DNA of 64,000 bases from Gerris lacustris (Eukaryota > Arthropoda > Insecta > Hemiptera > Gerridae). The DNA lies in assembly GCA_951217055.1 (NCBI GenBank), contig OX578285.1, positions 60,547,102-60,611,101 of the forward strand, given 5' to 3'. Below the pieces are notes generated by a model. It saw only the letters and a list, made by a program, of their open reading frames with translations, was not told the origin of the DNA and did not search any database. The position numbers and the translations under genes are program-made. This document shows, one piece after another, positions 3,180 to 57,145 of this stretch (positions within the stretch are counted from its first letter, which is position 1; every line of letters starts with the position of its first letter).

Positions 3180-3535
3180 ATGTCGACTTCAAAGTTTGTT
3201 GAGAGGGGAGCTTTGATTTTGTCAAAAAGATAAGTTTTCGTTTTGACAAAGTTTTCAACAGGGATTCCAAGTTTTTGACTTTAAAGAGACGAGAGAGGTT
3301 AGGTTTCTGTTTCAATCGAGCGCTTCCCATCCCCCTTACATCGAGGGATAGAATTATTTCGGCAACTAACTCGGTTAATTTGACGGAGCCGCGGTTAGGG
3401 GTTAAAATCGGTTCGGAAGTTTACCCTCGTTCCGCTTGGTCTCACGGCTTGATAGCCGCACTATTTCCACCGGCATAATCGGATTCCGGCATATTTTCAA
3501 GCCTTCGTTTTTATCGTCAGTGAAAATCTTTTCCA
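3180..3535. other. GC-rich island, possible old exon or element
   Basis: This patch is clearly richer in G+C and CpG than its surroundings. A short plus-strand open frame at 3275-3478 (67 codons, ending EVYPRSAWSHGLIAALFPPA) has balanced composition but matches no family I recognise. There is no splice or promoter evidence I would defend. It could be an exon, a retrocopy fragment or transposon debris. Base composition is the only firm observation. Confidence 0.3.
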
Positions 3536-7380: not shown

Positions 7381-7957
7381 ATAATAGTACATTACGCGTC
7401 GAGTGCGGAAAGTAGCATTTTGCATGCGAGTGTGGAGTTTGCACCCGAGCGACAGCGAGGGTTGTAAAACCACACGAGCAATGCAAAATGCCGTTTTCGC
7501 TCGAGTTGCGTACCGTACTTTATCTACGATTGTTAGATTTAATAATAAATACAGAAAAAAATACACTTGCTGTATGTAAGTTCGTATCTCTGTCTTGATA
7601 AAGATGGCATTAATTCTTGAGTTGTATTTTTTGCCGAATTAATTATTTCTGGAGGAGTATTATTCTCCACATTTTCGTCAAAGTCACTTAATTCACTCAT
7701 TGTTTTTCACTAAAAACTCGATATAAACAGCTACTTTAATAAAAGAACAGTAAATTAGTTTTGTTAAATGTAAACAAACTAGCTAACCGTGCGTAAAGCT
7801 GAAGAATTCCTCTTCTTTACCGCACTAGTCTGGTAAAGAAGAGGAATTCTTCAGAACTATGAGACGCGCATGCGTGATAAATACAAGTACGTAAATAATT
7901 ACTTTCAACGCATCTAAACAGAGATATAATGTTTATATTTCTTATCAATCGTAGATA
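7381..7957 (-). mobile_element. Hairpin family with Crypton-like exon, copy A
   Basis: First of six copies of one ~570-bp family in the window. In element orientation (minus) it runs: TATCTACGATTG-like end (7957); a GCGCATGCG word; a 56-bp hairpin at 7799-7854 with perfect 23-bp arms; an AT-rich leader; a short coding exon (7539-7700); the inverted word CAATCGTAGATA; then an imperfect ~132-bp palindrome (7387-7518) ending GTACATTACGCG-type. The pair TATCTACGATTG/CAATCGTAGATA looks like short terminal inverted repeats around the exon-bearing part. I see no enzyme beyond the exon, so the copy is nonautonomous. Confidence 0.85.
7539..7700 (-). CDS. N-terminal fragment of Crypton-like recombinase gene (copy A)
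   Basis: A 53-codon frame starts at the ATG at 7698-7700, just after the leader. The product is acidic and Asn-rich at first (SDFDENVENNTPPEIINSA), then reads PSLSRQRYELTYSKC before running into Phe/Tyr-rich element sequence and a stop. The phrase 'L-S-x-x-R/K-Y-E-L-T-Y-x-K-F' resembles the start of the SAM-like N-terminal domain of Crypton-type tyrosine recombinases of insects. That is a family resemblance from memory and is not tested. The catalytic domain is absent, so no recombinase activity is expected. The same exon occurs in the other copies with replacements such as R/K and S/D, which suggests it once coded for protein. Confidence 0.5.
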   Translation of the reverse strand: MSELSDFDENVENNTPPEIINSAKNTTQELMPSLSRQRYELTYSKCIFFCIYY

Positions 7958-8300
7958 AAAATATTTATTATACTATACTAATTCATTGTTACTAATTAAG
8001 CAGCTGACGCTGAGAACTACTAGCGCTTCCTGTACGGCGCGGCCCGTCCAGGAAGCGGCCGCTTCTCGAACTACTAGTGGCCCTGTAAAGAAAAAACATG
8101 CAGTTTTACACGCCCCAGGGCTGTAAAATGGAACTTTACCGGCCGCTCATGATAGGTATGTTTACAAGTGGAGGGCGATAAAAGATATAAAGAAAATGTT
8201 TAAATATCAATTAAATATAATTATGTTTTATAGTCGCTTACTTAAGTGTTAAAACGATTTATTTTAAATTAATTTTGCAAAGCACGAACAAGCAAAGACC
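7958..8300. other. Spacer with GC-rich imperfect hairpin
   Basis: Around 8020-8060 CGCTTCCTG pairs with CAGGAAGCG across a GC-rich loop, and CpG-rich sequence continues to about 8150. It abuts copy A, and may be part of another element. No ORF was recognised. Confidence 0.45.
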
Positions 8301-8500: not shown

Positions 8501-9030
8501 TGCAATGTAATAAACGCATCGATACGTCTGTAATGCGATTCTATCTTCCTCGACCCAAATTGATATTGATCGGGACGAAAAGCAGGAAAAGAAGTGGGGA
8601 ATGGGACATTATATGCAAGATATGGCTAACCACTCATCTAAACACAACTGCCCGAACACAAATGCGGTTCTATTGCCTAAATGATGTGAGAGCTTTCACT
8701 CGTATCGCATAGATGTGTACAGTCATCTCATTTTCTTTCCATTGTTATCTCTACTAATTTTGATCTCTTCGTTCATAACTCATATTTCTCTTATTGTTAG
8801 CACTGGTTTTGTTTTTTCTTCACATATTCCTAACTCCCAAACAATATCGTGCCCTCTTTTATATTGTACTATTCTTTTTTCCAATAAGATTTACTGATAT
8901 TATTTAGAATATGTGTGCAATAGTATCACTACATCTTTTCAATTTAAATTTAAGTAACAATACTAATTATGTACATGAATAATAGGATTATATGTTTGTA
9001 AACTTTTTTTTTGCAATATCTAGTCATTGA
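8501..9030. other. AT-rich stretch, nothing recognised
   Basis: A short frame at 8449-8712 starts in the tandem repeat and shows no recognisable family. I do not call it a gene. Confidence 0.45.
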
Positions 9031-9603
9031 TAATAGAACATTACGCGTCGAGTGCGGAAAGTAGCATTTTGCATGCGAGTGTGGAGTTTGCATCCGAGCG
9101 ACAGCGAGGGTAGTAAAACCACACGAGCAATGCAAAATACCGTTTTCGCACGAGTTGCGTACCGTACTTTATCTACGATTGTTAGATTTAAATAATATAT
9201 ACAAAAAAAATAAACTTGCTGTATGTAAGTTGGTATCTCTCTTGATAAAGATGGCATTAATTCTTGAGTTGTTTTTGGGCCGAATTAATTATTTCTGGAG
9301 GAGTATTATTCTCCACATTTTCGTCAAAGCCACTTGATTCACTCATTGTTTTTCACTAAAAACTCGATATATACAGTTACTTTAATAAAAGAACAGCAAA
9401 TTAGTTTTGTTAAATGTAAACAAACTCGTTAATCGTGCGTAAAGCTGAAGAATTCCTCTTCTTTACCGCCCTAGGGTGGTAATGAAGAGGAATTCTTCAG
9501 AACTATGAGACGCGCATGCGCAATGAATACAAGTACGTAAAGAATCACTTTCTACTCATCTAAACAGAGATACAATGTTTATATTTCGTATCAATCGTAG
9601 ATA
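9031..9603 (-). mobile_element. Hairpin family with Crypton-like exon, copy B
   Basis: Same order of parts as copy A. The 56-bp hairpin lies at 9445-9500, with CCCTAGGG-like sequence at its tip. The exon starts at the ATG at 9344-9346 but loses one base relative to copy A near codon 23 and stops early, so the reading frame is broken. The copy's end (GTAGATA at 9597-9603) directly abuts copy C, giving a head-to-tail pair. Confidence 0.85.
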
Positions 9604-10164
9604 ATAGAACATTACGCTTCTAGTGCGGAAAGTAGCATTTTGCATGCGAGTGTGGAGTTTGCACCCGAGCGACAGCAAGGATAGTAAAACCCACATGAGG
9701 AAAGCGAAATGCAGTTTTCGAACGAGTGGCGTACCGTACTTTATCTACGATTAGATTTTAATGATAAATACAGAAAAAATAATAATCTTCCTTTATGTAA
9801 GTTCGTATTTCTCTTTTGATAAAGATGACATTAATTCATTAGTTGTATTTTGTGCCGAATTAATTATTTCGGGATGAGTATTATTTTCCTCATTTTCGTC
9901 ATAATCACTTAAATCAATCATTGTTTTTCGCTAAAAACTCGATATAAACAGTTACTTTAATTAAACAAACAGCAATTAGTATTGTTAAATGTAAACAAAC
10001 TCGCTAATCGTGCGTTAAGGTGAAGAATTCAAGAATTCGCCCTAGTACGGAAAAAAAGAGGAATTATGAAACGCGGATGCGCAATGTATACAAGTTCGTC
10101 AAGAATTACTTTCTACGCATCTAAACAGAGATACAATGTTTATATTTCGTATCATTCGTAGATA
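9601..10164 (-). mobile_element. Hairpin family with Crypton-like exon, copy C
   Basis: Lies directly after copy B, sharing ATA at the junction. It belongs to the subfamily of copy D: the exon (ATG at 9919-9921) reads IDLSDYDENEENN..SSLSKEKYELT and then meets a stop where D continues to YRKF. The hairpin is shortened and degraded (about 10020-10070). The palindromic end at 9605-9735 has lost several pairs. It is more decayed than A or B. Confidence 0.8.
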
Positions 10165-11580
10165 AAAATTATTAATTTACTTTATACGTCCCTTATATAT
10201 TTATTTTATCATAGCACTTTCCAATTACCCCTTTTACTGTCACTTATTTTTAAAATAGAGGTTAATAACCTTTTTTATTTCCTATCTACTTTTAGTAAAA
10301 CGTTTTCTATTTAATAATACATAAGGTATTTACACCATGCTCTTAGGATTTCTAACTTATTACAAGGCCATAGCCCTTCTCAATAATTTTCTCTTGAAAC
10401 GGAAGGTGGCAACTATGAAAGTAACTAAATTATTTACGTTGTTTCTAAACGACAGTATTTTTCTAGTCGGTCATTGACATTAAAAGTGCGAAGGAAAGTG
10501 ATAGAAGTACCCTAGCATTATATCATTTATTAAATAAAGCCGTGTAACACATTTCCTGCTTTATTTATCTTCTCGGTTGTTTCACTATTATATTTTTGGA
10601 TGGATAACAGAGGTTTTTTTTTTTTTTGTTGAAAAATGTGTTTAGTGAGAAAGGAAAGGCTGTTGCTTATTTTAGTCACTTCGCTAACTTTTGAAAACGT
10701 CATAAAATATTTAGTGATGGAAGCAATTTTCTATGTTTTAAAAACTTTATACTTTTTTGATTCGGTTTCAAGTAATTGTATATTCAGTTTTAAGATCGAA
10801 TCAGTGCAATTAGCTAACGTTCTAGAGCGTCTTGTTGAAGATGTTTGTAAATAAGCAAAAATTCAAGTCGTAGCAAATGCGTACTTACATTTACCCAAGC
10901 GTATAAAGCCTTGCAGAAGAGCATGCATTAAAACTTTTTTCCTTAAAGCAGTCTACTGAGCTTGCACCGAGAATCTAAAGCTTTATGAAAAAACAGCTTT
11001 ATAATTTCTGTATGCTACTTCAATAAAGCCAGTGAGCCTACCTAATTCGGTTGCACCGGCATACTTAGTTGCTATAGCTACTTCGTTCCACGTTGTTAAA
11101 TGGAAGAAAACCTATTCACAGGCGCTTAATGGACGGGTGTTACAGGATCCCATGAAAGGATAGATTGACTTAACTTGAAGTTTTACCCTTGGTGTGGCAG
11201 GAGTGGCGGATTAGGCCGGCTTTTCTATAGACCCTTAACCAATCTCCTGCTTCTCCCGGGATTTTTTCCTCCACCCAGTTCAGACATCTTCTAATTAAAA
11301 GCTCTAAATCAAAACATGGCTCGAGTCGTTACATGCTTGTAATTCTTTCAATTTGTTCCTTAACCTCACTACCAGCCTCTTAAAAAAAAAAGAAAATTAT
11401 AAAAGTAATTTCATCCTTCTTTGAAAGCAATTATTATCTGGTAATTGTTGTAATTTGTTATATTAACGGGAAACAAGTTTATATTTTATATTCTTCTTTA
11501 TTTTATAAGTCTCGAAACTAGAACTGATATAGAAAAAACTTAATGATTAAAGTTTAAAAGAAAATGACACCAAAATATGT
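10165..11580. other. AT-rich stretch, nothing recognised
   Basis: A moderately G+C-richer patch at about 10960-11300 contains GGAGTGGCGGATTAGGCCGG and similar text, but I recognise no gene or element in it. An AT-rich 72-codon frame at 10636-10854 shows no family signature. Confidence 0.45.
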
Positions 11581-23060: not shown

Positions 23061-23519
23061 AAAAATTTGAAACTTTGCAGTTACGTTTTGTGTAATATCC
23101 CAAACTCCCAAACGCAGGAAAAGCATAGGGAAACTCAAAACAAAAATCGTACCTCAAAAACAAGTGGTTGAAACTTTTGTTTAACGGAAATGCGTCGTAG
23201 AGGCTGTTAAATAAAAGGGAGGACGCCCTTAGTACAAATATATATTTGTACCTATTCATCTTTGCACCATGTGTCCTTAGAAATTGCGACCCTTCCCATT
23301 TTTTACAAATCTAAAGAAATCGTTCTTTGACATTAGAAAAGGAATCTTGGTTTTTTAGGATTTTTTCATACGTCGCATATTTTGTTACACTGTTCAAACT
23401 GTCTGTATTCAACATCGGCAATTGTTTTGTTGTTTTGTTCTTATAAAAAAACTGATCATTTTTTGGAACGAAGTTCCTTATGGCACGTTCTGGAGCCCGG
23501 GAGTGAATCCGAAAAAAAC

Positions 23520-23590
23520 GACCATCACAATATCACCGTGACAGAATCACCGTCACAAAATCACCGTCACAAAACCAAGCGTCACGAAAT
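23520..23590. repeat. Short imperfect repeat of TCACCGTCACAAAA
   Basis: Three to four imperfect copies of a 14-bp unit, TCACCGTCACAAAA, extend to GCGTCACGAAATC. Too short to classify. Confidence 0.6.
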
Positions 23591-23858
23591 CTACCGATGA
23601 CGATAACTTGAGTAAAAGATGACCGAGTTAGTTGGAATTTGGTATACGTGTTCATTTTACCAATGCCCAGGATGAGTTCGTTGGACAACGTTATCCGCCC
23701 AAGCGTTCACACGCAACGCTCATGTAAACGTAAGCTTCAAATTTAAAATTGGGATTTAGGAAGATTTTAATAAAAATTCATACAAATCGTCTAAAGTACA
23801 ATAATTGAAATAGGCATGTAAAATTTCAACCTGATACAAGCAGAAGTTATTGCGTATT

Positions 23859-24508
23859 AAAGTGATATATTTTAATGATTTTTTTTTTTTTTTTAAATGG
23901 AGTAACAAATATGCCGGCGGAGTCTGAGGAAACAGTCGTGTTCCGTCACTACAAGCATCTGCTCTAACTCTTTTCTCGATATACAATACATTACTTATTG
24001 CAAGACGCTCGCTTAAATGTTAAGTAAATTATTTTCTTTTAATTTTGCCTTAACTCTGCTAAGTAGAAATAGTTGGTTACTTTTAATTTTGTCTCTTTTC
24101 TAACTCCACCATGTATAAGTATGTACTTAGTATCGTAAAACTTAGCTGTGATTTTATTTTTAATTTATATTTAATGAAAAGCGTAAGGAACTTTGTTTCT
24201 ACCGGGTGTCCCGCATTACCACACGCATTTTTTTCATTGAATCATCACCCTAAGTAAGTTCCACGTTCAATCTCTTTAGGTAGAATAAATTTAGTGTCTA
24301 GAGCTTAGTTCATAACTACGTATAGGGTTTCCCATGTTCGTTGTTAACCCGGCATTGTGAAGTACTTGGTTGTGTATGTGTAGCTACAGTACCGACAGTA
24401 GAAGCGTCCGTCGGTGTAGAGGAGTCGAGACGCTGACTCCCACCCATCCCTAAAATATTTAGTAGTAAAATACAGCGTGCTCTGCCACAGACTCGAGTAG
24501 GATGTTAA
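23859..24508. repeat. Left ~650-bp direct repeat flanking the LINE
   Basis: Matches 28791-29437 over its full length. The differences I count are a T-run (16 T here, 13 there) and three substitutions: CGCTTAAATG/CGCTTCAATG, AGTATCGTA/AGTACCGTA and CCACACGC/CCACGCGC. Both copies end GATGTTAA and then diverge. The left copy abuts the LINE 5' end and the right copy begins just after the LINE's (ATT)n tail, which is where a target-site duplication should lie. Confidence 0.95.
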
Positions 24509-24635
24509 GTGCTAAATTGCATATACTAATTAAAACAAATTGACAAACATTCATCATAACCTAGTGTTTTGTTTATAATTCGAGGCAAGAAAACACTTTT
24601 GACAAAGAAGGTACTGTGTGATCGTGTGGAACATC

Positions 24636-24715
24636 CGTAGCTGAGAGGCTTAGGCGCCTGCATACCCGTTTCGTTTTATCTGTATACTTCAACACATCCC
24701 GGGTTCAGTTCCCAT
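24636..24715 (+). promoter_or_regulatory. tRNA-like pol III boxes in the LINE leader
   Basis: GTAGCTGAGAGGCTTAGGCG (24638-24657) resembles an A box and GGGTTCAGTTCCC (24701-24713) a B box, spaced about 60 bp apart. They could be an internal pol III promoter or a SINE remnant captured in the leader. Folding into a full cloverleaf is poor. Confidence 0.4.
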
Positions 24716-24824
24716 TGCTTGGACATTTATTTTCTTTGCTTTCATTTCAATTAAATAGCCCGTTGATCTTCTGCCATAACTGACTAATACAATATTTATA
24801 ATTCTACATAATCGAAGAGGGAAA

Positions 24825-25547
24825 ATGGTGGACGTAAATACTTTAACTGATATGCTAAATAAATTTAAAGAAGATCTATTTAAACAGTTAAGTAAACAAA
24901 CAGAAGATATTCTTACAGGTTTTAATGAGACGTTATGCGAAACTAATAAGCTGGCAAAAGAAAATAGTGAGAGATTGAGCGTCTTAGAGAGGGAGGCGAG
25001 AAGGAAAAATATAATCATCCACGGGCTAAAGGAGAGCGGTCAATCTGAAAAACTTGTAGATAATGTACAGGGTTTTATGAAACAAGCTCTGGACCTAAAC
25101 ATTTTACCGAATGAGATAGATATGGTGAGAAGATTGGGGAAACCAGATGGAAATAAAGCAAGACCAGTTCTCGTCACTTTTACTACTCAATTAAGGAAAA
25201 TAGATGTTTTAAAAAATAAGAAAAAACTGAAAAATTCTGACGTTTTCATTAATGAGGACTACCCTATACATATCAGAGAAAAAAGGAAATCTTTGTATAA
25301 GGAAATGGTAGAAGCAAGGGAGAGCGGAAAATTCGCTATCATTCGATATGATAAACTAATTATTAAGGAAGTTGACCGTAACATCTACGATAAGAAATCT
25401 AGACGACCAAAAAGAGACATAAGTGAATCACCGAACAGTAAGGGCACCAAAGAAAAAGATATTAAGAAAAGTAAGCCAGAGGATCACTCAAGTCGAAAAG
25501 GATTAGACGCGTTTTTTCGTCCCCGATGTGAATCGTGGAAACAGTAA
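24825..25547 (+). CDS. LINE ORF1 protein (coiled coil plus RRM-like)
   Basis: 240 codons, starting at the first ATG after the leader. Residues ~1-60 are heptad-like and charged, fitting a coiled coil (KFKEDLFKQLSKQTEDI, ENSERLSVLEREARR). Residues ~60-165 carry NIIIHGL, then MVRRLGK, ARPVLVTFTT and VFINEDYP, the pattern of the RRM-like domain of L1-type ORF1 proteins (Transposase_22-like), which bind element RNA and form the RNP. The C-terminus is very Lys/Ser-rich and probably disordered. There is no CCHC knuckle. It overlaps ORF2's open frame by about 41 nt and appears intact. Confidence 0.92.
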   Translation: MVDVNTLTDMLNKFKEDLFKQLSKQTEDILTGFNETLCETNKLAKENSERLSVLEREARRKNIIIHGLKESGQSEKLVDNVQGFMKQALDLNILPNEIDMVRRLGKPDGNKARPVLVTFTTQLRKIDVLKNKKKLKNSDVFINEDYPIHIREKRKSLYKEMVEARESGKFAIIRYDKLIIKEVDRNIYDKKSRRPKRDISESPNSKGTKEKDIKKSKPEDHSSRKGLDAFFRPRCESWKQ

Positions 25548-28517
25548 GCGAGAGTGGATAAGTCAAAAGTTTGAAATAAGGAATAACATTATTACTAATA
25601 AGAACTCAAATCTCCTAGAAAGCGTGGTCGGCCAAGGAGATTATGACCTAAACCTCCCAAAAACAAGTAGGGAAAATAGAAAACCCAAGCGGAAAAAAGA
25701 AGCATTAAATATTGGTACTCTAAATGTAAGAACCCTGTCATCTTCTTGGAGACTTGAGGAATTAGACGAGGCACTCAAGAATTCGTGCATTCAGATCCTG
25801 GGATTAGCGGAAGTCAGAAGAAAAGGAGAGAGAATAATAAAACTGAAGTCTGGCTCTACTTTTATGCACTACGGTGAAAGGAACGATCAGCGGGGAGTGG
25901 GCTTCCTAGTTAAAGAAGAAGAGGCACAGAATATAGTTGAGTTTAAACCAGTTTCAGACAGAGTTGCTAGTCTTCGAGTCAATATTGGAAAAGAGAAATA
26001 CTTGACTTTGATTCAGGTATATGCACCAACAATACAATATGACGAAGAAGCTGTAGAAACTTTTTACAAGGACCTTGATGATTGTTTGCTGGCAGCTAAG
26101 AAAATCAAACAAAATTTTGTCATCGTAATAGGGGATATAAACAGTCAAGTAGGAACAAAGCAGTGTGAGGAAGAGGATGTGTTAGGACCCTACGGATTCG
26201 GCTCAAGGAACGACAGGGGAACGAGACTTCTAACATTCTGTAAAGAAAATAACCTAAGAGTCATGAACTCATTTTTTAAGAAAAGAAGAGGAAACAAGTG
26301 GACATGGTTGTCTCCTAATGCGAGTTGTAGAAATGAGATTGATTTTATGTTAAGTGAGAGAAGAGACATTTTTCTAGACGTCGAAGTAATGAGAAAATTT
26401 CCTTTCTTATCAGAGCACCGTGTTGTTAAAGCTTCCCTAAGTTTTCCTAGAGTACACAAACCACGTAAATCTAGTTATACGAAGAAACTCGTTGACTCCA
26501 TGCTTTACATGGAAAAAATCAAGTGTAAAATCAGTCAAATGCAAAGGATATACTTTCGAGATGTACAGGTCAGGTACAATGAACTTGAAAATATATTGTT
26601 GACATCGTCAGAAGAAAGTACAGTCTTAGAAAAACTTAAAACCCAGAAGATGACTGAAAATACCTACAAACTTATTAAAATAAGAGAAGAACTTAGAAGT
26701 AGAAGTGGGAAAAGTGTAGCAGAAAGAATAGAGCTTAGCGAAGTTTGCAAGATAACTAAAGCAGCTATTAGAAAGGATGTCGAAGAATACCACAATAAAA
26801 TAGTAGAGGACTGCTTAAAAAATAACGTGGCAATAAAGAAAGCAAGGAAAATTACAAGTGTGGGAAAAGATTGGATACCTGCTCTTAAGTCAACTAACGG
26901 AGTCATGGAAAGATCCAGAACTGATGTTCTTCAAATAGCCACAGATTTCTATTCTAATCTCTACAATGAAACAAACAAGGAGTCAGAGAGGCTCACACCG
27001 ATTAGCCTACCACTTCATCATGATATTTTTCCATTGATATTAAAAGAGGAAGTAAGGGAAGCCGTTAATAGCTTAAAAAAAGAAAGAAGCCCTGGAGCTG
27101 ATGGTATTACATCTGAAATGATACAAGAAGGTGGGGAAGTTCTAATCGAGGAATTGACAACTCTCTTTAATAAAATCAGCAGCGAAAGAAAAGTCCCCAG
27201 GCAGTGGTGTGACTCGGATATAATTTTAATTCATAAGAAAGGAAGTAAAGAGGAAATTATAAATTATAGGCCTGTAAGCTTGATGTCATCGGTAGGCAAA
27301 GTGTTTGCTAAAGTATTGCAAGCAAGAATGAAGAGTAACATTTGTGAGAGCTTATCATGGGAACAAGCAGGATTTAGAAAAGGCTTCAGCACAGTCGATA
27401 ACTTGCAAGTGATTCAGCAGCTTATAGAGAGAAGCAAAGAGTACCAGAAAGTCATTTACATGGCCTTTATAGACTATTCTAAAGCATTCGATTCCCTGAA
27501 TCACAGTTTCTTGTTCGCCGCTCTAGCAGAGCAAGGGGTTAACAATTGTATAATCGACATTTTAAAAAATTGGTATTATAACAGTCGAGCCAGAGTTAAA
27601 CTGGAGAGAAATGGTATTTTCTTCAATATACAGAAGGGTGTAAGGCAAGGAGACCCATTATCACCAGATTTTTTTCCGCCGCATTGGAGAAAGTCTTTTT
27701 GAAGCTGAACTGGGAGAGCAGAGGGGTTAATATAAACGGAGCTAAGCTGAGCAACCTTAGATTTGCAGACGATTTAGTGGTATTTGCTGAGTCATTAGAA
27801 GAAATCAAAATTATGCTGCAAGAATTAAATGAAGCTAGTGAGCCTGCTGGTTTGAGTGTTAACTTTGAAAAAACCTGCCTAATCACGAATAGTGACGAAG
27901 GGGTATTAAAAATAAGCGGCAAAGAACTTACTTGGGTAAAAGAAACCATATACTTAGGCCAACTCATATCTCTGGACCAGGATGGCAATATGAAAGAAGT
28001 TAAAAGAAGAACTGAGTTGGCATGGAGAAAATTTTGGTCTTTAAAATATATATTTAAGAGCAATATGAATCCTGCATTGAAGGCCAAAGTTTTTAATAGC
28101 TGCATAATTCCATGCTTATCATATGGCAGTCAAACCTGGGCTCTAACAGGGAAAGTTTTGCACCACTTGGAGGTGACTCAAAGGGCTATGGAAAGGAGTC
28201 TACTAAAAGTCAGACTCTCAGACCAAATAAGATCTACCGAGCTAAGGAAGAAGTCAGGGGTGAGAGATGTAAGAGAGGCAACACTTAAATTAAAGTGGCA
28301 GTGGGCAGGACATGTTGCTAGAATGGAGGAGCAGAGATGGGCTCAACGCATCACTGACTGGTACCCCAGGGATGGAGTCAGGAAAAGAGGCAGGCCGGCG
28401 AGAAGATGGAGAGACGACATCACCAACTTTTGCGGTATGTTATGGCATCGTTCAGCAAGAGATAGAGAAGCGTGGGCAAAATTGGGAGAGGCCTATGCCC
28501 GTAGATGGGCTGCTTAG
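25507..28517 (+). pseudogene. LINE ORF2: endonuclease plus reverse transcriptase, one frameshift
   Basis: The ORF2 frame opens after a TAG at 25504 and runs to about 27700, then continues in another frame to 28517 (RRWAA, stop). About residues 58-300 are the EEP endonuclease: NIGTLNVRTL, ILGLAEVR (catalytic Glu), VIGDINSQVG and the closing SEHRVV (His). The RT spans roughly 26930-27960 bp, with SPGADGITSEM, PRQW..DIILIHKKG, AGFRKGFST, FIDYSKAFD (first Asp), GVRQGDPLSP, and RFADDLVVF (FADD box). The basic C-terminus reads WAGHVARME and GRPARRW. A one-T loss in the T run at 27669-27675 shifts the frame between the GDPLSP and FADD motifs, so this copy cannot make full RT. No ATG exists in frame before 25864, inside the endonuclease. 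Confidence 0.93.
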
Positions 28518-28790
28518 AAAAATATTTATTTTTTATAGAAAAATATAAAAAAAAAAAAGAAAAGAAGAAATTTATTATTATTTAATTTTAATTTAAAGGG
28601 TATACATTATCTGAGGAAAAATAAATAAATAAAAATGAGGTACAAATACTTTTTAATTTAAGATTTTTTTAAATAATGTTTTTAAGAAGTGAAAAAATAA
28701 ATAAATAAAATTATGTATAATTTCTCGTTATGTATATATATATATATATATATATTCAATAAAGGCTATTATTATTATTATTATTATTAT

Positions 28791-29437
28791 AAAGTGATAT
28801 ATTTTAATGATTTTTTTTTTTTTAAATGGAGTAACAAATATGCCGGCGGAGTCTGAGGAAACAGTCGTGTTCCGTCACTACAAGCATCTGCTCTAACTCT
28901 TTTCTCGATATACAATACATTACTTATTGCAAGACGCTCGCTTCAATGTTAAGTAAATTATTTTCTTTTAATTTTGCCTTAACTCTGCTAAGTAGAAATA
29001 GTTGGTTACTTTTAATTTTGTCTCTTTTCTAACTCCACCATGTATAAGTATGTACTTAGTACCGTAAAACTTAGCTGTGATTTTATTTTTAATTTATATT
29101 TAATGAAAAGCGTAAGGAACTTTGTTTCTACCGGGTGTCCCGCATTACCACGCGCATTTTTTTCATTGAATCATCACCCTAAGTAAGTTCCACGTTCAAT
29201 CTCTTTAGGTAGAATAAATTTAGTGTCTAGAGCTTAGTTCATAACTACGTATAGGGTTTCCCATGTTCGTTGTTAACCCGGCATTGTGAAGTACTTGGTT
29301 GTGTATGTGTAGCTACAGTACCGACAGTAGAAGCGTCCGTCGGTGTAGAGGAGTCGAGACGCTGACTCCCACCCATCCCTAAAATATTTAGTAGTAAAAT
29401 ACAGCGTGCTCTGCCACAGACTCGAGTAGGATGTTAA
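28791..29437. repeat. Right ~647-bp direct repeat flanking the LINE
   Basis: Partner of 23859-24508, starting immediately after the LINE (ATT)n tail and ending GATGTTAA, after which unrelated sequence (TCCATTAATTG) begins. The copies differ by only about three substitutions plus a T-run length. Confidence 0.95.
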
Positions 29438-32400
29438 TCCATTAATTGTTCATAATAACAAAACTACCAATATACCTAGCTCTAAGACCAGACAGATGAC
29501 AAGTTGCTGAAACATTTTATCAGAATTCACCTAGTTTTACTATCAATCGGGACGTAAATAAAAAGGAAATATATTATATATAAAATCTTTATTATATTAT
29601 AAATAAAATTTCATTTGCATTCTGTCTTTTATAATTTGCTGTAAAATCTATTAAAATACTGTGTATCCAATTGAAAAAGAAAAAAATTATTTTAATAAAT
29701 TATTAATAAAATTTTAAAACATTTATAGAAATTTTAATTTTTAATGATTAAAACAATTTGTTCTATTCTATTATTAAATATCTTTAATAATAAAAGAAAA
29801 ATATTTGTTTACTACCATATTCAACTAATATAATATTAATAGTATTTTTTAAACCATCTAATTTCATTTACTTATTAGTATCGGGGAATGTTATCGTGCT
29901 AGTTTTGTAATATCGTTTGGTTTTTAAATAATAAAATTAATTAATCCTATCAATCAAAATGCTAATGGTATATTTATCTGTAATAAATGTTATTACAATG
30001 AAATAATTTTAAAAATGCCATGTTCGCATGAATTACAGGTTCATTACTACAGTATATGTAATTGAATTCTTAAAACGTTCGTGTGAAGACACAAAAAATG
30101 GTGTTATTTCAGTGAAATATTGGAAAACTTTTTTTTTTATAATGGGCAGTAATGATCTACTAAATGCAAAAAATTTTTTTGTTTTTTTTTTATTTCCATC
30201 CTATCAAATGTAGGTATTCATTTTCAATGGCAGAATAGAGCATTGGCAAAGAAAAAAAAAAGAAGAAAAACAGGTAATTATGTGCTAGGAGAGGTGACAA
30301 ATTGAAAAAAAATTAACATCCTTATCAGACATTTCATTGAAAGAATAACTGCTAAAATTTACATCATAATTAGCATTTTCGTGTTTATAACACATTCGTG
30401 TGTGTTGCTACATTATTTATCTCGGGCATTGGGGAACAACCGTTTAATTATTCCCTGTTTTTCTGTTATAATATATATTTTTTTTAATTTATGTATCCAG
30501 TATACCGCATATAACTATTTACGTAGTGTGTATATATAAATTATATTAGTAATTATAACGGGTTATCATTAAATAAAAACATAATAATGACGTAAAACTT
30601 TTATTTACAACTTTTTAATACTATAATGTGTTTGTTTATGTATATTTTTTTAATAGCCCTTGTTTTTATTATAATTTACGTTCTGTTTGTGTATAATTTA
30701 AATTAATTATAGTGTGGTTATAAGTAAAAAGATTATTACGATTTGTCCTTTAATTATTTAATGGCCGGTTTGATGAACTGATTATGAAAAATTATACATC
30801 TTTGACTGATATATATTTTAATCATAAGTCAATTAGGTTAATAAGTAAGTAACTTTTTTCTTTCGAAGACTGAAGAAGAGTTGCTGTCGGTAAAAAAATA
30901 GAAATAACTATATTGTCCTCGTAAATCAACAATTTACTGTAAAATTGGCAAGAATATTTATAAACCCATTATTTAACTTACAATTTACATTATTTTAGCA
31001 CCCTTTTAATTATCTTCACATGTTTTTCCGGGACACATGTTGTAACCTAAATTGACCCACTTTACGACTACCCAGAAAGCTGAAACTTGCACAAATTATG
31101 CCTTTTCGATGACAATACAATAATAATCAGTAATTATTTTAGTATCAGCCGATTGATTAATTAATTTGCGACAGTTTTTGGTGGTAAAAATAAAATAAAT
31201 TGTAAACAAACACGATCAGGGGCAGATACGAGAGGTCATTTCCATTTAAATCATTTTATTTTTTTCTGCAAAGAGTTCGCTGTTGTGTAGAGCAAGCTCG
31301 GTTAGAACCCTGTTCCACTTCCTTTGGGGCAAGCTTTAGTGCCTCCAAGCAGTCGCTGTTGATAAATCAACCAAGACGGCTACCAGTTAAGTGAGCTTAG
31401 AATAGATTACAAGATTTAACTTGACGAAAACAAATAAGGAGAAAATAATATTATCAACAGTTTGTCATTTGTTGATAGCGCGCCTCGCTTTTATTAGTCT
31501 TTATTTTTAGTGTCACACGCATACACTATGATGGCTCGTGGTACTGTGGCTGTTAAAATTATATTTTTAATTTTAGAGCATTTTCTATGAAAGCATTTTT
31601 TGTAAAATAAAATATATAATATCATTTAAAGAACTATTTGCAATTGTAATAATTATTCAAATATATTTTCTTCTCTATAGTGTATTGGTAAGTGAAATCT
31701 TTATAGTTCTTATTATCTTATATAATTTTCATTCTCGTTGTGCAATGAGTCAGAATATTTTTAGCCTCTTACCACGATATCGAGCTTATGTTACACTATT
31801 GTTTCATATGCTCGGCTACCTGTCATGTATTTATTTATATCTACATGCATGTCTGTATGTCCACTGTATACCTGGGTCTTCTTCTTCTCCTCATACTCTC
31901 TAAAGACTGTAAGCTTCAAACTCATCATTTATTTTGTCACCTAGTTCTGACAATGTACCTTGGCTCAATTCAACTTTCTTTAAAAAAAGACTACTTATGT
32001 GTCATCTAGTTTTGTCTTGTTTCTTATCCATTCATGGTCTTGATCTTTTTTATCTTTTCTCGGTATTCTAAGCATATACCTATCCGTATTTGGGTCGCTC
32101 TAGATTTTCTCCCGAACTTTTGAATCAATAGGCAATCAAAAAGGCCCTTAAAACTTTCAAACAAATAGTCCCTGATTGTGGCCCCGCAGGCTTGATTGTA
32201 GAGAAACCAAAGCGTCTAACAATAACTTAAGTAAAAGTTAACCCATACCGCTAAAATCTAGTGCACGTGTACCTTTTCAGATCAATGCAGAAACTTTTGC
32301 TCGAGTGTCTGTCAGCAAAGTGTAAATTTATCTGACGATGTCTTGAATTGTAGTCAAACTTTAGTTTAAGCGGAAATTTTACCTTTGCAATACTCTCCCT

Positions 32401-32546: not shown

Positions 32547-34216
32547 TTATGTGTAATCGTATCCGACGGTAAATTTAGTACTACTACTATTTAACTGAAT
32601 GTATAATATATACACGTTTGTTTTATCGATGCAATGGTTGTGTTTGTCATTAGCATATTTATAATCGTACCCGACGATAAATTGAGAAAAAGTCGTTCTA
32701 TTCAACTGAATGTATATAAACGTTCGTTTTATCGATGCAATTGTTGTGTTTGTCATTAGCATATTTATAATCGTATCCGACGATAAATTGAGAAAAAGTA
32801 GTTTTATTCAACTGAATGTATATAAAAGTTCGTTTTATCGATGCAATGTTTGTCATTAGCATATTTATAATCGTATCCGACGATAAATTGAGAAAAAGCC
32901 GTTCTATTCAACTGAATGTATATAAACGTTCGTTTTATCGATGCAATTGTTGTGTTTGTCATTAGCATATTTATAATCGTATCTGACGGTAAATTGAGTA
33001 CTACTACAATTTAACTGAATGTATATATACATGTTCGTTTTATCGATGCAACTGTTGTGTTTGTCATTAGCATATAATCGTATCCGACGATAAATTGAGA
33101 AAATGCCGTTCTAATCAACTTAATGTATGTATAAACGTTCGTTTTATCAATTAAATAGATGTTTGTTATTAGCATATAATCGTATCTGACGGTAAATTGA
33201 GTAAAAGTCTTACTATTTAACTGAATGTATATACACGTTCGTTTTATCAATGTAATGGTTGTGTTTTTCATTAGCATATAATCGTATCCGACGATAAATT
33301 GAGAAAAAGTCGTTCTATTTAACTGAATGTATATAAACGTTCGTTTTATCGATGCAATTGTTGTGTTTGTCATTAGCATATTTATAATCGTATCTGACGG
33401 TAAATTGAGTACTACTACTATTTAACTGAATGTATATATACACGTTCGTTTTATCGATGCAATGGTTGTGTTTGTCATTAGCATATTTATAATCGTATCC
33501 GACGATAAATTGAGAAAAAGTCGTTTTATTCAACTGAATGTGTATAAACGTTCGTTTTATCGATGCAATGTTTGTCATTAGCATATTTATAATCGTATCC
33601 GACGGTAAATTGAGAAAAAGTCGTTCTATTCAACTGAATGTATATAAACGTTCGTTTTATCGATGCAACTGTTGTGTTTGTCATTAGCATATAATCGTAT
33701 CCGACGATAAATTGAGAAAAAGTTGTTCTAATCAACTTAATGTATGTATAAACGTTCGTTTTATCAATTAAATGGTTGTGTTTGTCATTAGCACATAATC
33801 GTATCCGACGGTAAATTGAGTAAAAGTCATACTATTTAACTGAATGTATATATACATGTTCGTTTTATCGATGCAACTGTTGTGTTTGTCATTAGCATAT
33901 AATCGTATCCGACGATAAATTGAGAAAAAGTCGTTCTAATCAACTTAATGTATGTATAAACGTTCGTTTTATCAATTTAATGGTTGTGATTGCTATTAGC
34001 ATATAATCGTATCTGACGGTAAATTGAGTAAAAGTCTTACTATTTAACTGAATGTATATATACATGTTCGTTTTATCGATGCAACTGTTGTGTTTGTCAT
34101 TAGCATATAATCGTATCCGACGATAAATTGAGAAAAAGTCGTTCTAATCAACTTAATGTATGTATAAACGTTCGCTTTATCAATACAATAGTTGTGTTTG
34201 TCATTAGCATAACAAT
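32547..34216. repeat. ~105-bp satellite array, about 16 units
   Basis: The unit carries ATCGTATCCGACGATAAATTG, then AACTGAATGTATATAAACG, TTCGTTTTATCGATGCAA and TTTGTCATTAGCATA. The CGTATC[C/T]GACG block occurs near 32560, 32667, 32773, 32869, 32980, 33079, 33181, 33285, 33388, 33497, 33596, 33697, 33801, 33907, 34012 and 34115. Two main variants alternate, one with GAGAAAAAGTCGTTCTA and one with GAGTACTACTACTATT or GAGTAAAAGTC, suggesting higher-order units of about 200 bp and more. Minus-strand frames across it only translate the repeat. Confidence 0.95.
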
Positions 34217-35309
34217 ATTATTTAATGAAAAATTAAGTAAATGTCGTTCGTCAACTGAATCTCTGTATAAATAGTATACACTTACGATAAATAGTAAACA
34301 CGTTTATTTTTTCAATGCAATGCTACTGTCAGAATGTAAGGTCAAAACGTGAAAGTAACTGGTAACTTAAATCTATTTAAAATTTCAATTATTTATTATT
34401 ATTATATTTCATTTAGCCCCCCCCCCCCCCCCCTCGAAAAAAATCTATTGATTTCAATTATAAATGTAGATGATAAACAATTTTAAAAATATTTTAAACT
34501 GCAAATCAAATCGCAAAATACAAGTCACTTAATCAAACTCTGTGTCGATAAAATAGTTTTACCATTAAATGAATTTATGGAGTGAATATTGTTTAATTAC
34601 GGGGAATATTTTTTTCATTAATATGTATGTATTAATGTAGCGTAGCACATTAAGCAGTTTAAACTTATCGGAATGTTAAATCATGTATTATGTTTCAAAC
34701 ATCTATTCTCATCATTAGTATCAGAATGTATTGAATTATCGTAGATTTTTCTCATTTGAAAACGTTAAACTAATCGGTATTAAAATGTATGGATTATTAA
34801 TAAATTATAAATTACCATTAATTATTGGTGATTTAGACTGTATTTCCTCTAATATTCTATTCCATTATTGTTCCAGAAATATTTTATTTTAAAATAATTC
34901 AATTATCTGTATTAATTTATAACAGTAATATATCTTCTACACATTTATTCTTAGTACAATTCAGAATTTTTATAATTTTACGAGGAAAAAAGACTTGGAA
35001 TCAGCATTTATATAAAAATAATTCGCTGAAAGTCTTTCAGCAGGAAGACCGATTGATTGATTGCCGTAAGTTGTTAGACATCTTCGGAGCTTTGTAATTA
35101 TTGTCATTGTCAAGGAAATAAATAAGTATATCGGCAAAGACTTTTATATATTGTGGAAAACTAATCATCGGTTATCGTATAAGAGCTAATGAGTCATTTA
35201 TATCGATGAGTTTTGTCCACTCTGAGTCAAAGATTTGTAGAACGTTTATTCTTAAAACTTAAAGCAATATTATGTTTGTTATGAATCGAGGGGAGAACTA
35301 AAGAGTAAT
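34217..35309. other. AT-rich stretch with a poly-C run
   Basis: About 16 C in a row at 34417-34432. Otherwise AT-rich DNA with no gene recognised. Confidence 0.5.
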
Positions 35310-36189: not shown

Positions 36190-37740
36190 CATTTATTTAT
36201 TTATTCATATTTTAAGAGCCCTCAACGGCAACAAGCCACAAGTGAGGCACTCTTGGTAAGGCGAAAATAACAATCTGTTACGTTAACATAATAATATAAA
36301 TAATATAAGTAGTAACATTAAAAAAATAATAAAATGTATGTACAAAAACAAAAGCTATAATAGATAAAAAACGAAAACACAACAAAACTTATTAATTTAG
36401 TATGCCTAGGATAGGATGGGATATGGGAGCGGAAAGAAAAGGTAGTATGGCGGAAAGACGGGAGAAACATTCGATATGACTACGGACACTATTAACAGGG
36501 ATAGCTAACATATTGAAAGAATTAACACAGCGGACCAGAGGACTAGAAGTAGATAGATCTCGAATATATAGAGCACGGCCACTTCTACGGTCAGGGGGGA
36601 GGACTACAACCTGAGAGATTTCCCTACAGAAAAGTTTAAGCGACAAAGCTTTCGAAATAAAATGTATTTCATAAGCCGTTCGTCTTAAAGCTAGAGACTC
36701 CAAATCAAGGTGTTTACATAAGTGGTCATAAGAATAATAAATACGACGAAACAAATAACGATGGTAACATAAACGAATAAAATTGCGCTGAACAGATTCA
36801 ATATTGGCTGATTTGTACTGGGGTAAATTATTCCATATTGGGACTGCGTATTCTAACAAAGGACGGACAAGGGACTTGTATAAATGAATGAAGCACTCAA
36901 GTGAAAGGTCACGACAAATATTACTAATGAGACCAAGAGCACGGGACGCGCGACGCACTATGATATCGACAAAATCGTGGAACTGGAGTTTGGAATTCAG
37001 AGTGACACCAAGGTCAACAACTGAGGAGACATGTATAAGAGAACTGTCATTCAAAATGTAATTAAATTTTATAGGGTAGGATAAACGAGTGAAAGTTATG
37101 GCACTACATTTAGAAGTATTAAAATTCATGCGGTTTCTAAGAGCCCACATTGAAAGATTTGTGATGTCATTCTGGAGGAGATTGCAAGATGTCTCGTCCT
37201 CGATAGTCCGAAATAGCTTAAGATCGTCAGCAAAAAGTACATAATTACTTGTGATCGAAGAACCTATGTCATTTATAAACACTAAAAAAAGCAGGGGACC
37301 TAGGATCGACCCTTGAGTGACTCCTGACTGAGAGTGGAAAGGTGCAGAATAGCTGGAAGATATCCGGACAGAACAATAGTGGAAGGAAAGATAGTTGGCA
37401 AACCATTGAACCAGTAAAGGACAGAGACCAAACTTCAAAAGTTTTGAAAGTAGGATGCCATGATGGACAAGATCGAATGCTTTGCACATATCAAGGTAAA
37501 CAGCGTCGACCTCGAGTGGAAACAGTTTGGTTTGTAAGGGAGACGAAGGAAGCAAGGTTGGTAATAGTAGATCGTTGAGATCGAAAGCCATGCTGGTTAG
37601 GGTCAAGGAGAGGCTCAACAAGAGAAAAGATATTAGTGTGTATGACTCGTTCCAAAACTTTGATATATTAACTTCTTCGAAAAGCCTCTTTGTCAAACAT
37701 CCAGGAAACATACAAATATTTAAATTTTGACAAACATATT
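36190..37740 (-). mobile_element. 5'-truncated Jockey-like LINE
   Basis: A minus-strand non-LTR element containing the RT and C-terminal half of ORF2, then an AT-rich 3' region and a (AAAT)n tail at 36191-36205. Just before the tail is TTGCCGTTGAGGGCTCTT. The 5' part (endonuclease, ORF1) is missing, as is common after incomplete reverse transcription. I see no certain target-site duplication. Confidence 0.85.
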
Positions 37741-37759
37741 TTGAACTATCAGAGTTCAA
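36392..37759 (-). pseudogene. Jockey-like reverse transcriptase, frameshifted 5' end
   Basis: A 455-codon open frame. Its first ~75 codons are the wrong frame: the genuine RT text there (HGFRSQRSTITNL) lies in a neighbouring frame, and joins the long frame near 37500 at VDAVYLDMCKAFDLVHH. From there the RT is continuous: first catalytic Asp in YLDMCKAFD, QSGVTQGSILGPLLFLVFIN, then VLFADDLKLF (FADD). The C-terminal part has LVRPLLEYAVPIWNN and SVQRNFIRLCYHR, typical of the Jockey/I-like group. The enzyme would copy element RNA at a nicked target. Truncation and the frameshift make it inactive, though the long intact stretch suggests moderate age. Confidence 0.88.
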
Positions 37760-43019: not shown

Positions 43020-44340
43020 TAGATCTATATGTCGAGTTGTCATTTCAATACTTAATATGCTTATCACTTTAATAAGCATCCATCGAGTAATTATTTTGAT
43101 GCCTGTATTAAGTGTTCACAGTGTTTATATCGAATTATTACTCTAACAATAATTTTCTTTTTCAAATTTTTGTCTTTGATCCTCAGCCTGCATATCGAAC
43201 GACGATTTTCTTTCCCGTGTTTACTCAATACGCTACTTTTAAGTTATCAAATTATTATGTCTGGTTATCACTTCGATACTCAATATTATGCTTGAATCAA
43301 GTTATAATAGCAATTCTTATACCATGTTATCACTTTAATTCTTTACCTTATCACTTTCACATGATTATCACTTTAATAAGCTTCCATCAAATTATTATTT
43401 CGATGAATATATTATAACTATAACTTTTCAAAATGTTTATATTGAATTATCACTCTAGCATTTTTTATTCTTTGATTCTCAGCATGCAGAATTCTGAATT
43501 CAATACTCAATATACTAATTTTAAGTTATTAAGCAGATGCTCAACACGCTTATGTCGAGTCACTTTGATACTTAATATTATGCTTATATTAAGTTCATAG
43601 CAATTCTTATACCTCGTTATCACTTAAATCCTTTACCTTCGATGCTTAACATGCAATTTAACATTTTATCACTTCGTTACTTGATATGCTTACTTTGAGT
43701 TATCATTTCGATTATTATGTCTGGTTATCAATTCGATACTCAATATCATGCTTATATCAAGTTATCATAGCAATTCATACATCGCGTTATCACTTGAACC
43801 CTTTAACTTCGTGTTATCACTTCGGTACTTAATATGCTTACTTTGAGTTATCATTTCGATTATTATGTCTGGTTATCAATTCGATACTCAATATCATGCT
43901 TATATCAAGTTATCATAGCAATTCATACATCGCGTTATCACTTGAACCCTTTAACTTCGTGTTATCACTTCGGTACTTAATATGCTTACTTTGAGTTATC
44001 ATTTCGATTATTATGTCTGGTTATCAATTCGATACTCAATATCATGCTTATATCAAGTTATCATAGCAATTCATACATCGCGTTATCACTTGAACCCTTT
44101 AACTTCGTGTTATCACTTCGGTACTTAATATGCTTACTTTGAGTTATCATTTCGATTATTATGTCTGGTTATCAATTCGATACTCAATATCATGCTTATA
44201 TCAAGTTATCATAGCAATTCATACATCGCGTTATCTCTTGAACCCTTTAACTTGGAGTTATCACTTCGGTACTTAATATGCTTACTTTAAGCTATCATTT
44301 AGATTATTATGTCTGGTTATCACTTGGGTGTTTCACGACT
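43020..44340. repeat. Degenerate GTTATCAC satellite, left block
   Basis: The stretch is a loose array of ~25-30-bp phrases of the type 'GTTATCACTTCGATACTTAATATGCTTA'. Copies diverge strongly on the left and become a clean higher-order array on the right. Related text resumes at 45410-45930, so the two blocks were probably once continuous. Confidence 0.85.
43640..44335. repeat. 148-bp higher-order tandem array, about 5 copies
   Basis: TATGCTTACTTTGAGTTATC recurs at 43685, 43833, 43981, 44129 and (with changes) 44277, exactly 148 bp apart. Middle units look identical over long stretches. Each unit contains several of the short GTTATCA phrases, so this is a recent amplification of an older degenerate repeat. 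Confidence 0.95.
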
Positions 44341-44397: not shown

Positions 44398-44545
44398 AAA
44401 CAATTTTAATATGTAACAATTAACATTAACAAGACCTATTTGAATAAATAATAAATACAAGACTGGCCACTACAGAGTGTAGTGCTGAGTCTTGCATTTA
44501 TTCAAATAGGTTTGCTTAATGAATTGTTACATATTAAAATTGTTT
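44398..44545. repeat. 148-bp near-complete hairpin
   Basis: The outer 24 bp pair perfectly (AAACAATTTTAATATGTAAC.. with ..GTTACATATTAAAATTGTTT). Inner pairing continues through ACCTATTTGAATAAATA/TTTATTCAAATAGGT, CAAGACT/AGTCTTG and CACTAC/GTAGTG. It abuts copy D exactly. Confidence 0.9.
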
Positions 44546-45130
44546 ATCTACCTACTATTGATACGAAATATAAACATTGTATCTCTGTTTAGATGCTTAG
44601 GAAGTGATTCTTTGCGTACTTGTATTCATTGCGCATGCGCGTCTCATACTTCTGAAGAATTCCTCTTCTTTACCACCCTAGGGTGGTAATGAAGAGGAAT
44701 TCTTCAGCTTTACGCACGATTAGCAAGTTTGTTTACATTTAACAAAACTAATTTGCTGTTTGTTTAATAAAAGTAACTGTTTACATCGAGTTTTTTTGTG
44801 AAAATCAATGAGTGATTTAAATGATTATGACGAATATGAGGAGAATAATACACCTCCCGAAATAATTAATTCGGCGCAAAATACAACTAATGAATTAATG
44901 TCATCTTTATCAAAAGAGAAATACGAACTTACATACAGGAAGTTTATTATTTCTTTCTGAATTTATTATTAAAATATAACAATCGTAGATAAATTATGGT
45001 ACGCAAATCGTAAGAAAACGGCATTTTGCTTTGCTCGTGTGGTTGTACTACCCTCGCTGTCGCTCGAGTGCAAACTCCACACTCGCATGCAAAATGCTGC
45101 TTTCTGCACTCGACGCGTAATGTACTATTA
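44545..45130 (+). mobile_element. Hairpin family with Crypton-like exon, copy D
   Basis: Plus-strand copy with all family parts: an altered TATCTA end, the 56-bp hairpin at 44652-44707, the exon at 44808-44960, CAATCGTAGATA near 44980, and the palindromic end at 44997-45125. It shares exon variants (SDLNDYDEYEENN, SSLSKEKYELTYRKF) with copy C. Confidence 0.85.
44808..44960 (+). CDS. N-terminal fragment of Crypton-like recombinase gene (copy D)
   Basis: 50 codons plus stop. An acidic Asn/Pro-rich start (DYDEYEENNTPPEIINSAQ) is followed by ELMSSLSKEKYELTYRKF, then IISF and a stop where the element sequence resumes. The latter phrase resembles the first helix of the SAM-like DNA-binding domain of insect Crypton tyrosine recombinases (from memory, untested). 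Compared with copy A, the shared coding part differs by several synonymous changes and conservative R/K swaps, consistent with descent from two active source genes. The catalytic R-H-R-Y part is absent. Confidence 0.52.
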   Translation: MSDLNDYDEYEENNTPPEIINSAQNTTNELMSSLSKEKYELTYRKFIISF

Positions 45131-45327
45131 TACTTAACATTATTTTTGTTACATGTTGTTAGTTGTTATGTATTATGAGATGAAAAAAATGTATCAAATT
45201 TAAATTTTATTGGAATCTAGCTTGACTTAATTTATTTGTTATGAATCTTTTAAATTATGACTTTCTCTTATGGAGAAGAAGAATTATAGAATTACAGAAC
45301 TAAACAGTTTAATAAATAAAGCTATGA

Positions 45328-52317: not shown

Positions 52318-52877
52318 TTGCGCGTCTAGTGCGGAAAGTAGCATTTTGCATGCGAGTGTGGAGTTTGCACCCGAGCGATAGCCAGGGTAGTAAAACCACA
52401 CGAGCAAAGCAAGATGCAGTTTTCGCACGAGTTGCGTACCGTACTTTATCTACGATTGTTGGATTTAAATAATAAATACAGAAAAACATATTTATTAAAC
52501 TTCCTGTTTGTAAGTTCGTATTTCTCATTTGATAAACATGACATTAATTCATTAGTTGTATTTTGTACCGGATTAATTAGTTCGAGAGGCGTATTATTCC
52601 ACATTTTCGTCATAATGACATAAATTAATAAATATTTTTCACTAAAAACTCGATATAAACAGTTACTTTAATTAAACAAACAGCTTTAGTTTAGTTAAAT
52701 GTAAACAAATTCGCTAATCGTGCGTTAAGGTGGAGAATACTTCTTTTTTACTTCACTAGGGCGGAAAAAAGAGGAATTATGAAACGCGCATGCGCAATGA
52801 ATACAAGTACGTAAATAATCACTTTCTACGCATCTAAACAGAGATACAATGTTTTTATTTAGTATCAATCGTAAATA
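52318..52877 (-). mobile_element. Hairpin family with Crypton-like exon, copy E
   Basis: Minus-strand copy. The palindromic end, leader and CAATCGTAAATA end are recognisable. The exon has lost its ATG (ATT) and the hairpin near 52735-52785 no longer pairs well. A decayed member of the C/D subfamily. Confidence 0.8.
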
Positions 52878-52974
52878 AAAGAACTATATCATCATTATCT
52901 AATTGTTTTATTTCGTGAGATTATGGTTCTTACAATCGACTAGCTTAGTTCCAAAAGCTTGTTGTATCAACAAA

Positions 52975-57112: not shown

Positions 57113-57145
57113 AAATTCTGTATCTCACTCTACTGTAATTTTTTT

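What the first reader, a model, noticed from the sequence alone, without database searches (positions are those of the whole stretch)
23859..29437. LINE flanked by ~650-bp direct repeats: an exceptionally long target-site duplication
The repeats touch the LINE exactly at its 5' leader and after its (ATT)n tail, and unrelated DNA begins just beyond each. They differ by three substitutions and a T-run length. LINE target duplications are usually from a few to some tens of bases, so ~650 bp implies second-strand nicking very far from the first. The alternative is insertion beside, or recombination with, a pre-existing repeat.
Basis: partly seen in the sequence, partly recalled or inferred. Interest (0 to 1): 0.8.

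Follow-up and report, generated by a model that had tools for sequence, protein, structure and literature searches.

The report
LINE insertion with 651-bp target-site duplication
A shortened LINE retrotransposon landed in a 937-Mb genome, probably an insect's, and left 651 bases of its landing site on both sides, where the sister copies that were measured show only about 9 to 15: real and unusual, but of a kind already described for human LINE-1.

Summary
A 651-bp segment (23858-24508) recurs as 648 bp at 28790-29437, directly flanking a LINE (24509-28789), with 3 substitutions and a 3-nt T-run difference. It is best read as a target-site duplication. Its right 269 bp was found only twice in the 937-Mb assembly, in these two copies. 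Its left ~375 bp belongs to a dispersed repeat that runs across the left cut in 25 of 28 other copies examined. In 17 other measured copies of this LINE (4 with the full leader, 13 truncated) the best flank match is 9-15 bp and no long flanking repeat was found; this copy is 1 of 18. One correction: the window LINE is 5'-truncated by ~320 bp, joined through a 3-nt microhomology. Its 3' junction resembles its sisters', so the oddity lies in joining the 5' end to a break ~650 bp away, on the same duplex or a sister chromatid. Large duplications are reported for human L1 in cultured cells (PMC5223499, passages) and a tumour (PMC7058536, passages). New member of a known kind.

The parts
23468..24233 (.). 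Dispersed repeat copy (internally deleted near 23762 relative to the aligned copies) that was the pre-insertion target and spans the left cut
   Evidence: blastn against 28 other copies L003-L030; alignment of 14 of them; 25 of 28 span the cut
23858..24508 (.). Left copy of the target-site duplication, 651 nt
   Evidence: full-length genome matches only here and at 28790
24240..24508 (.). Single-copy part of the duplicated target; 100% identical to 29169-29437
   Evidence: exactly two matches in the 937-Mb assembly, both here
24506..24508 (+). TAA microhomology between target end (GATGTTAA) and LINE leader (GCTCTAA in copy D) at the 5' junction
24509..28789 (+). LINE, 4281 bp, 5'-truncated by ~320 bp relative to sister copies that carry the leader
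24825..25547 (+). LINE ORF1, 240 aa; named relatives are lepidopteran proteins; no significant Pfam family
25528..27702 (+). LINE ORF2 first part: endonuclease-like (Pfam match below its cut-off) and reverse transcriptase; frame interrupted near 27680
27684..28517 (+). LINE ORF2 remainder (end of the reverse transcriptase domain and C-terminal region) in another frame
28756..28789 (+). LINE 3' end and (ATT)n tail
   Evidence: same end in sister copies
28790..29437 (.). Right copy of the target-site duplication, 648 nt
29438..29900 (.). Right flank, single-copy host DNA
   Evidence: one full-length match genome-wide; the only other match covers query 297-366 at 81%

Best explanation
A LINE RNA was inserted by target-primed reverse transcription. 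The element's endonuclease nicked the bottom strand at GCGTAT|TAAAGTG inside an old dispersed repeat, and the freed 3' end primed cDNA synthesis on the (AUU)n tail. Synthesis stopped ~320 nt short of the RNA 5' end. The cDNA end was then joined, through a TAA microhomology, to a top-strand break 651 bp downstream instead of the usual ~9-15 bp. Filling in left both sides with the same 651 bp. Shown: the pair, the single-copy status of its right part, the empty-site structure on the left, the truncation, the microhomology, a sister-like 3' junction, the absence of a long duplication in 17 measured sisters, and divergence compatible with one event. Inferred: the order of steps, and whether the second break lay on the same duplex or on a sister chromatid (the confidence covers both versions).
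For: The pair abuts the LINE to the base. The whole segment is matched in full only by the pair; the right 269 bp has exactly two matches, 100% identical; the right flank is also single copy. The dispersed repeat spans the left cut in 25 of 28 copies (alignment of 14). The three substitutions, polarised against those copies whose sequence a pattern could read: site 1 C in 8 of 9, left has A; site 2 T in 19 of 19, right has C; site 3 A in 17 of 18, right has G, as expected for mutations after duplication. 17 of 17 measured LINE copies have best flank matches of 9-15 bp, 12 of 17 starting TA like the window's TAAAGTG, and no repeat of 60 bp or more at 80% or more in the flanks held. Control: 12 bp or more in 11 of 17 true pairs against 6 of 272 mismatched pairs. 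Window-private LINE substitutions: 14 of 3882 gap-free sites (0.36%), against 3 in about 1296 (0.23% per copy) for the pair, so the duplication is not older than the insertion. L1 duplications of hundreds to thousands of bp: PMC5223499 (passages). An L1-bridged direct duplication: PMC7058536 (passages).
Against: No empty allele or read data were seen, so an assembly error is not formally excluded. The right end of the segment lies in single-copy DNA, so the empty-site structure there is inferred. Truncation does not explain the length: the 13 truncated sisters measured also lack long duplications. In human L1, truncation goes with shorter duplications (PMC2912911 passages; that study covered 5-30 bp only). 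Six of the 17 sister readings (9-10 bp) are individually within what mismatched pairs give (44 of 272 reach 9 bp); for those only the lack of a long duplication is firm.
Confidence: 0.85

Rival explanations
1. Sister-chromatid (or homologue) bridging: the cDNA made at the left cut joined a double-strand break 651 bp downstream on the other chromatid, giving a LINE-bridged direct duplication. This is one of the two versions inside the main explanation; it differs in where the second break lay.
For: Predicts the order left flank - X - truncated LINE - X - right flank. Proposed for L1 in a tumour (PMC7058536 passages). Microhomology and truncation suit end joining.
Against: Nothing in the sequence distinguishes it from a distant nick on one duplex; the direct duplication described in the passages I saw is 22.6 Mb long.
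Confidence: 0.4
2. Two steps: a normal insertion with a full leader and a short duplication, then a later microhomology-mediated join between an empty homologue (broken at the end of the 651-bp segment) and the filled homologue (broken ~320 bp inside the LINE).
For: Explains the loss of the leader together with the long duplication; the 3 differences between the copies could be haplotype differences rather than later mutations.
Against: Needs a second rare event at the same place; one-step routes are described in print.
Confidence: 0.1
3. A pre-existing tandem duplication of 651 bp (breakpoints sharing TAA), with the LINE inserting later exactly at the junction with a 3-bp duplication.
For: The junction bases allow a 3-bp TAA duplication.
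Against: Requires insertion exactly at the junction in a 937-Mb genome; the 17 measured sisters show matches of 9-15 bp, though the six of 9-10 bp could be chance; the pair is not more diverged per copy than the LINE, barring gene conversion.
Confidence: 0.03
4. The 651-bp segment is an LTR-like terminal part of the element, or a repeat that this LINE targets.
For: Part of it is a dispersed repeat, and one other LINE copy (L077) also lies inside a copy of that repeat, at another position.
Against: No long repeat on both sides of the 17 measured sisters; its right part is single copy; the boundary lies inside, not at the end of, the dispersed repeat.
Confidence: 0.01
5. Assembly artefact.
For: No reads could be examined.
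Against: A mis-join would have to coincide with a LINE truncation point and a base-exact boundary; the copies differ by 3 substitutions, so one is not a plain duplicate of the other; no third copy of the single-copy part, such as an empty haplotype, is in the assembly.
Confidence: 0.04

Closest known systems
Human L1 insertions with large target-site duplications in cultured cells (PMC5223499, passages seen)
   Same: LINE insertion with direct duplication of hundreds of bp of target; that paper states over 100 bp in at most 10% of recovered HeLa events, and a median of 1495 bp in repair-deficient lines
   Different: Those are engineered L1 events in human cell lines; this copy sits in a genome assembly, belongs to another LINE family, and its 17 measured sisters lack long duplications
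L1-bridged tandem duplication in a tumour (PMC7058536, passages seen)
   Same: LINE at the junction of a direct duplication; the authors propose that the cDNA strand joined a break downstream on a sister chromatid
   Different: Somatic and 22.6 Mb long; here 651 bp
RTE-clade LINEs (SR3 paper PMC1291365, passages seen)
   Same: Reverse transcriptase ORF with an endonuclease-like part; short 3' UTR ending in an AT-rich trimer repeat; duplications of 10-12 bp in SR3, like the sisters here
   Different: This element has a 240-aa ORF1; no tree was built here, so the clade is unresolved

Membership tests
Target-site duplication made by LINE insertion | Direct repeats directly abut both ends of the element | tested here: met
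Target-site duplication made by LINE insertion | Repeat is host target DNA, not part of the element | tested here: met
   No long flanking repeat in 17 of 17 measured sister copies; right part has only two matches
Target-site duplication made by LINE insertion | Pre-insertion site recognisable as left flank + one segment + right flank | tested here: inconclusive
   Met on the left through the dispersed repeat (25 of 28 copies); the right side is single copy and no empty allele was available
Target-site duplication made by LINE insertion | Duplication as young as the element | tested here: met
   0.23% per copy against 0.36% window-private in the LINE, a rough upper bound; only 3 substitutions, and gene conversion not excluded
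Target-site duplication made by LINE insertion | Length typical of this LINE family (9-15 bp) | tested here: not met
   651 bp; 1 of 18 measured. Length is typical, not defining, so the filing stands
RTE-clade LINE | Reverse transcriptase plus AP-type endonuclease in one ORF | tested here: inconclusive
   RVT_1 2e-19; Exo_endo_phos_2 below its cut-off, 19.6 against 27.4 bits
RTE-clade LINE | Short 3' UTR ending in short AT-rich repeats (as stated in PMC1291365, passages) | tested here: met
   28518-28789 with (ATT)n tail
RTE-clade LINE | At most a very short ORF1 (43 aa in RTE-1, as stated in PMC1291365, passages) | tested here: not met
   ORF1 of 240 aa with lepidopteran relatives; not filed as RTE
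RTE-clade LINE | Position in a reverse-transcriptase tree | not tested
   No tree was built

The most novel reading that the evidence does not exclude
A germline LINE of an insect-like genome made a duplication by bridging sister chromatids: LINE cDNA joined a break 651 bp away on the other chromatid, so that LINE insertion itself is a source of small direct duplications of host DNA outside mammals.
Probability: 0.35. Interest if true: 0.5.

Novelty: new member of a known kind. Interest (0 to 1): 0.38.

Why it matters
It is a clean natural example, with 17 measured sister copies from the same genome as comparison, of a LINE insertion whose first cut looks normal and whose other end was joined some 40 to 70 times further away than usual. 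It suggests that the large duplications seen with human L1 in culture and in a tumour can also arise in a germline with another LINE family. It also leaves the element bracketed by a 651-bp repeat that could later recombine and remove it (inference).

Tried and rejected
Considered and rejected: LTR-like part of the element; insertion beside a pre-existing repeat (the repeat runs across the cut); an older tandem duplication. I first thought the segment might hold the last exon and 3' UTR of a host gene; the short ORF behind that idea lies in the dispersed repeat, so I dropped it. I also first read the other copies as starting at 24509. That was an artefact, because the query itself began there, and the first flank comparison used the wrong 5' end; the flanks show ~320 bp more leader.

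Led nowhere: a phage-collection search (no match); Rfam on 23400-29600 (none); PDB and Pfam for ORF1 (nothing significant). Literature searches returned no paper and one search returned one. In the listings, judged by titles and starts of abstracts, and in the passages seen of seven papers, I saw no natural LINE duplication of this size outside L1. That is a limited search of an open-access library, and absence from it proves little.

Limits of the sister count: one search scored 40 of 133 first-look candidates. Of its 22 non-window rows at 90% identity or more, 17 were measured. Not measured: C1:148.6M (only its 3' side read), C11:20.26M, C1:160.8178M, C1:160.8115M and C1:56.49M; also C1:136.26M, known only from its 5' side, and the older copies below 90%. 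Of the four copies called 'with the full leader', A (C1:156.9M) has lost ~330 bp internally; C11:55.16M is also internally deleted. Two readings are soft: L076 (low complexity, 15-nt gap) and C1:86.79M, where the script took a match in the tail and my hand reading is TAATATTAG. Exact matches can include a few bases shared with the tail. Control on mismatched flanks: 44 of 272 pairs reach 9 bp and 6 of 272 reach 12 bp, so the six readings of 9-10 bp are not individually significant. Flanks held were short for L072 (left 451 bp) and L078 (right 186 bp).
Full report
What was checked. The window lies at C11:60547102-60611101 of an unnamed 937-Mb assembly in 69 contigs. The repeats are there: 23858-24508 and 28790-29437, 651 and 648 nt, with three substitutions and three extra T in the left T-run. 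Between them lies a LINE with ORF1 (240 aa) and an ORF2 interrupted by one frame change. ORF2 carries a reverse transcriptase (RVT_1). Its best named relatives are proteins of Lepidoptera at 37-41% identity, and the named relatives of ORF1 are lepidopteran too. The host is therefore probably an insect, but it was not identified.

Is the segment host DNA? A genome search with 642 of the 651 bases gave 41 rows. Only the two in the window cover the whole query; the other 39, at 79-88% identity, lie within query positions 1-385 (only 40 of 2834 first-look candidates were scored, so the repeat is more numerous than listed). The right part, 24240-24508, gave exactly two matches, both in the window and both 100% identical. 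The right flank 29438-29900 is also single copy; its only other match covers query 297-366 at 81%. The segment is thus part of a dispersed repeat plus single-copy DNA.

Where does the left boundary fall? The dispersed repeat extends left of it: window 23460-24238 matches other copies on both sides of 23858. In an alignment with 14 copies the majority line reads GCGTATTAAAGTGATATA straight across the LINE's 3' cut, and 25 of 28 copies have an alignment spanning at least 10 nt on both sides of it (missing L004, L008, L029). So before insertion the left flank and the segment were continuous, and the right-hand copy begins in mid-repeat because the LINE's 3' end sits there. This is the logic of nested-transposon target analysis, mentioned in PMC2912911 (passages).

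Is the LINE complete? Other copies at 97-100% identity continue upstream of the window's 5' end with a shared leader of about 310-320 bp. The window copy is 5'-truncated there. At the junction, target GATGTTAA and leader GCTCTAA share TAA.

What do sister copies do? For 17 other copies (4 with the full leader, 13 truncated at different points) the longest exact match between the end of the left flank and the start of the right flank is 9-15 bp, and none shows a flanking repeat of 60 bp or more in the flanks held. As a control I compared flanks of different copies: 11 of 17 true pairs reach 12 bp, against 6 of 272 mismatched pairs; 17 of 17 true pairs reach 9 bp, but so do 44 of 272 mismatched ones. 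So about 9-15 bp is the rule for the family, yet six single readings of 9-10 bp could be chance. What is firm for all 17 is the absence of a long duplication within the flank lengths held. Some have extra bases at the 5' junction. In 12 of 17 the match starts with TA, next to the (ATT)n tail, as in the window (TAAAGTG). The first cut and priming therefore look ordinary in the window copy; what differs is how far away the other end was joined. One sister copy (L077) is itself nested in the same dispersed repeat family, at another position, with a 14-bp match.

Timing. The three differences between the copies were polarised against the repeat family: one is derived in the left copy (C in 8 of 9 readable loci) and two in the right (T in 19 of 19; A in 17 of 18). 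All three lie in the dispersed-repeat part; the 269-bp single-copy part is identical. That is 0.23% per copy, against 14 window-private substitutions in 3882 gap-free LINE sites, 0.36%, a rough upper bound for mutations since insertion (five other copies for the 5' half, seven for the 3' half). The duplication is not older than the insertion, unless gene conversion has reset it; with three substitutions this is a weak clock.

Mechanism. The main reading is target-primed reverse transcription that stopped short and was sealed to a distant break. PMC5223499 (passages) states that L1 duplications over 100 bp never exceeded 10% of recovered HeLa events, reports a median of 1495 bp in nucleotide-excision-repair-deficient lines, and suggests a distant or chance second nick. 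PMC7058536 (passages) reports a 22.6-Mb direct duplication bridged by an L1 and proposes joining to a break on the sister chromatid. Both give the order seen here; the sequence cannot tell them apart. A two-step origin by later joining of homologues is possible but needs more events.

Verdict. The find is a well-controlled natural case of a known but uncommon outcome, in a LINE family other than the one where I saw it described. It is not a new kind of element or mechanism.

Noticed in passing
24640-24712 (LINE leader): The leader holds stretches resembling Pol III A and B boxes (TAGCTGAGAGG ... GGGTTCAGTTCCC; the box motifs are recalled, from no call), but neither ARAGORN nor Rfam called a tRNA there.
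   Followed up: partly
G000 C6:278446-280671 (L042, L048, L052-L062): In a diverged relative of the LINE (74% identity) the ORF1 stretch matching query 415-469 recurs: 38 matching rows, mostly 42 bp apart.
   Followed up: no
23468-24233 and L003-L030: An unidentified, numerous dispersed repeat of roughly 0.9 kb with GGAACGAAGTTCCTTA near one end and its reverse complement near the other.
   Followed up: partly
7375-7987, 9030-9615, 9601-10184, 44518-45132, 52317-52884, 57135-57736: A ~600-bp repeat with six copies in the window, in both orientations, 82-94% alike.
   Followed up: no
32548-34272; 43057-44325; 55302-56002: Tandem or near-tandem arrays seen in the self-comparison.
   Followed up: no
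36392-37759 (-): A second reverse transcriptase fragment on the other strand (RVT_1, 6.7e-17).
   Followed up: no
L078 (C3:90.99M): The copy truncated at LINE position 3401 has its 3' end over 1 kb further on than expected, as if something inserted near its end.
   Followed up: no
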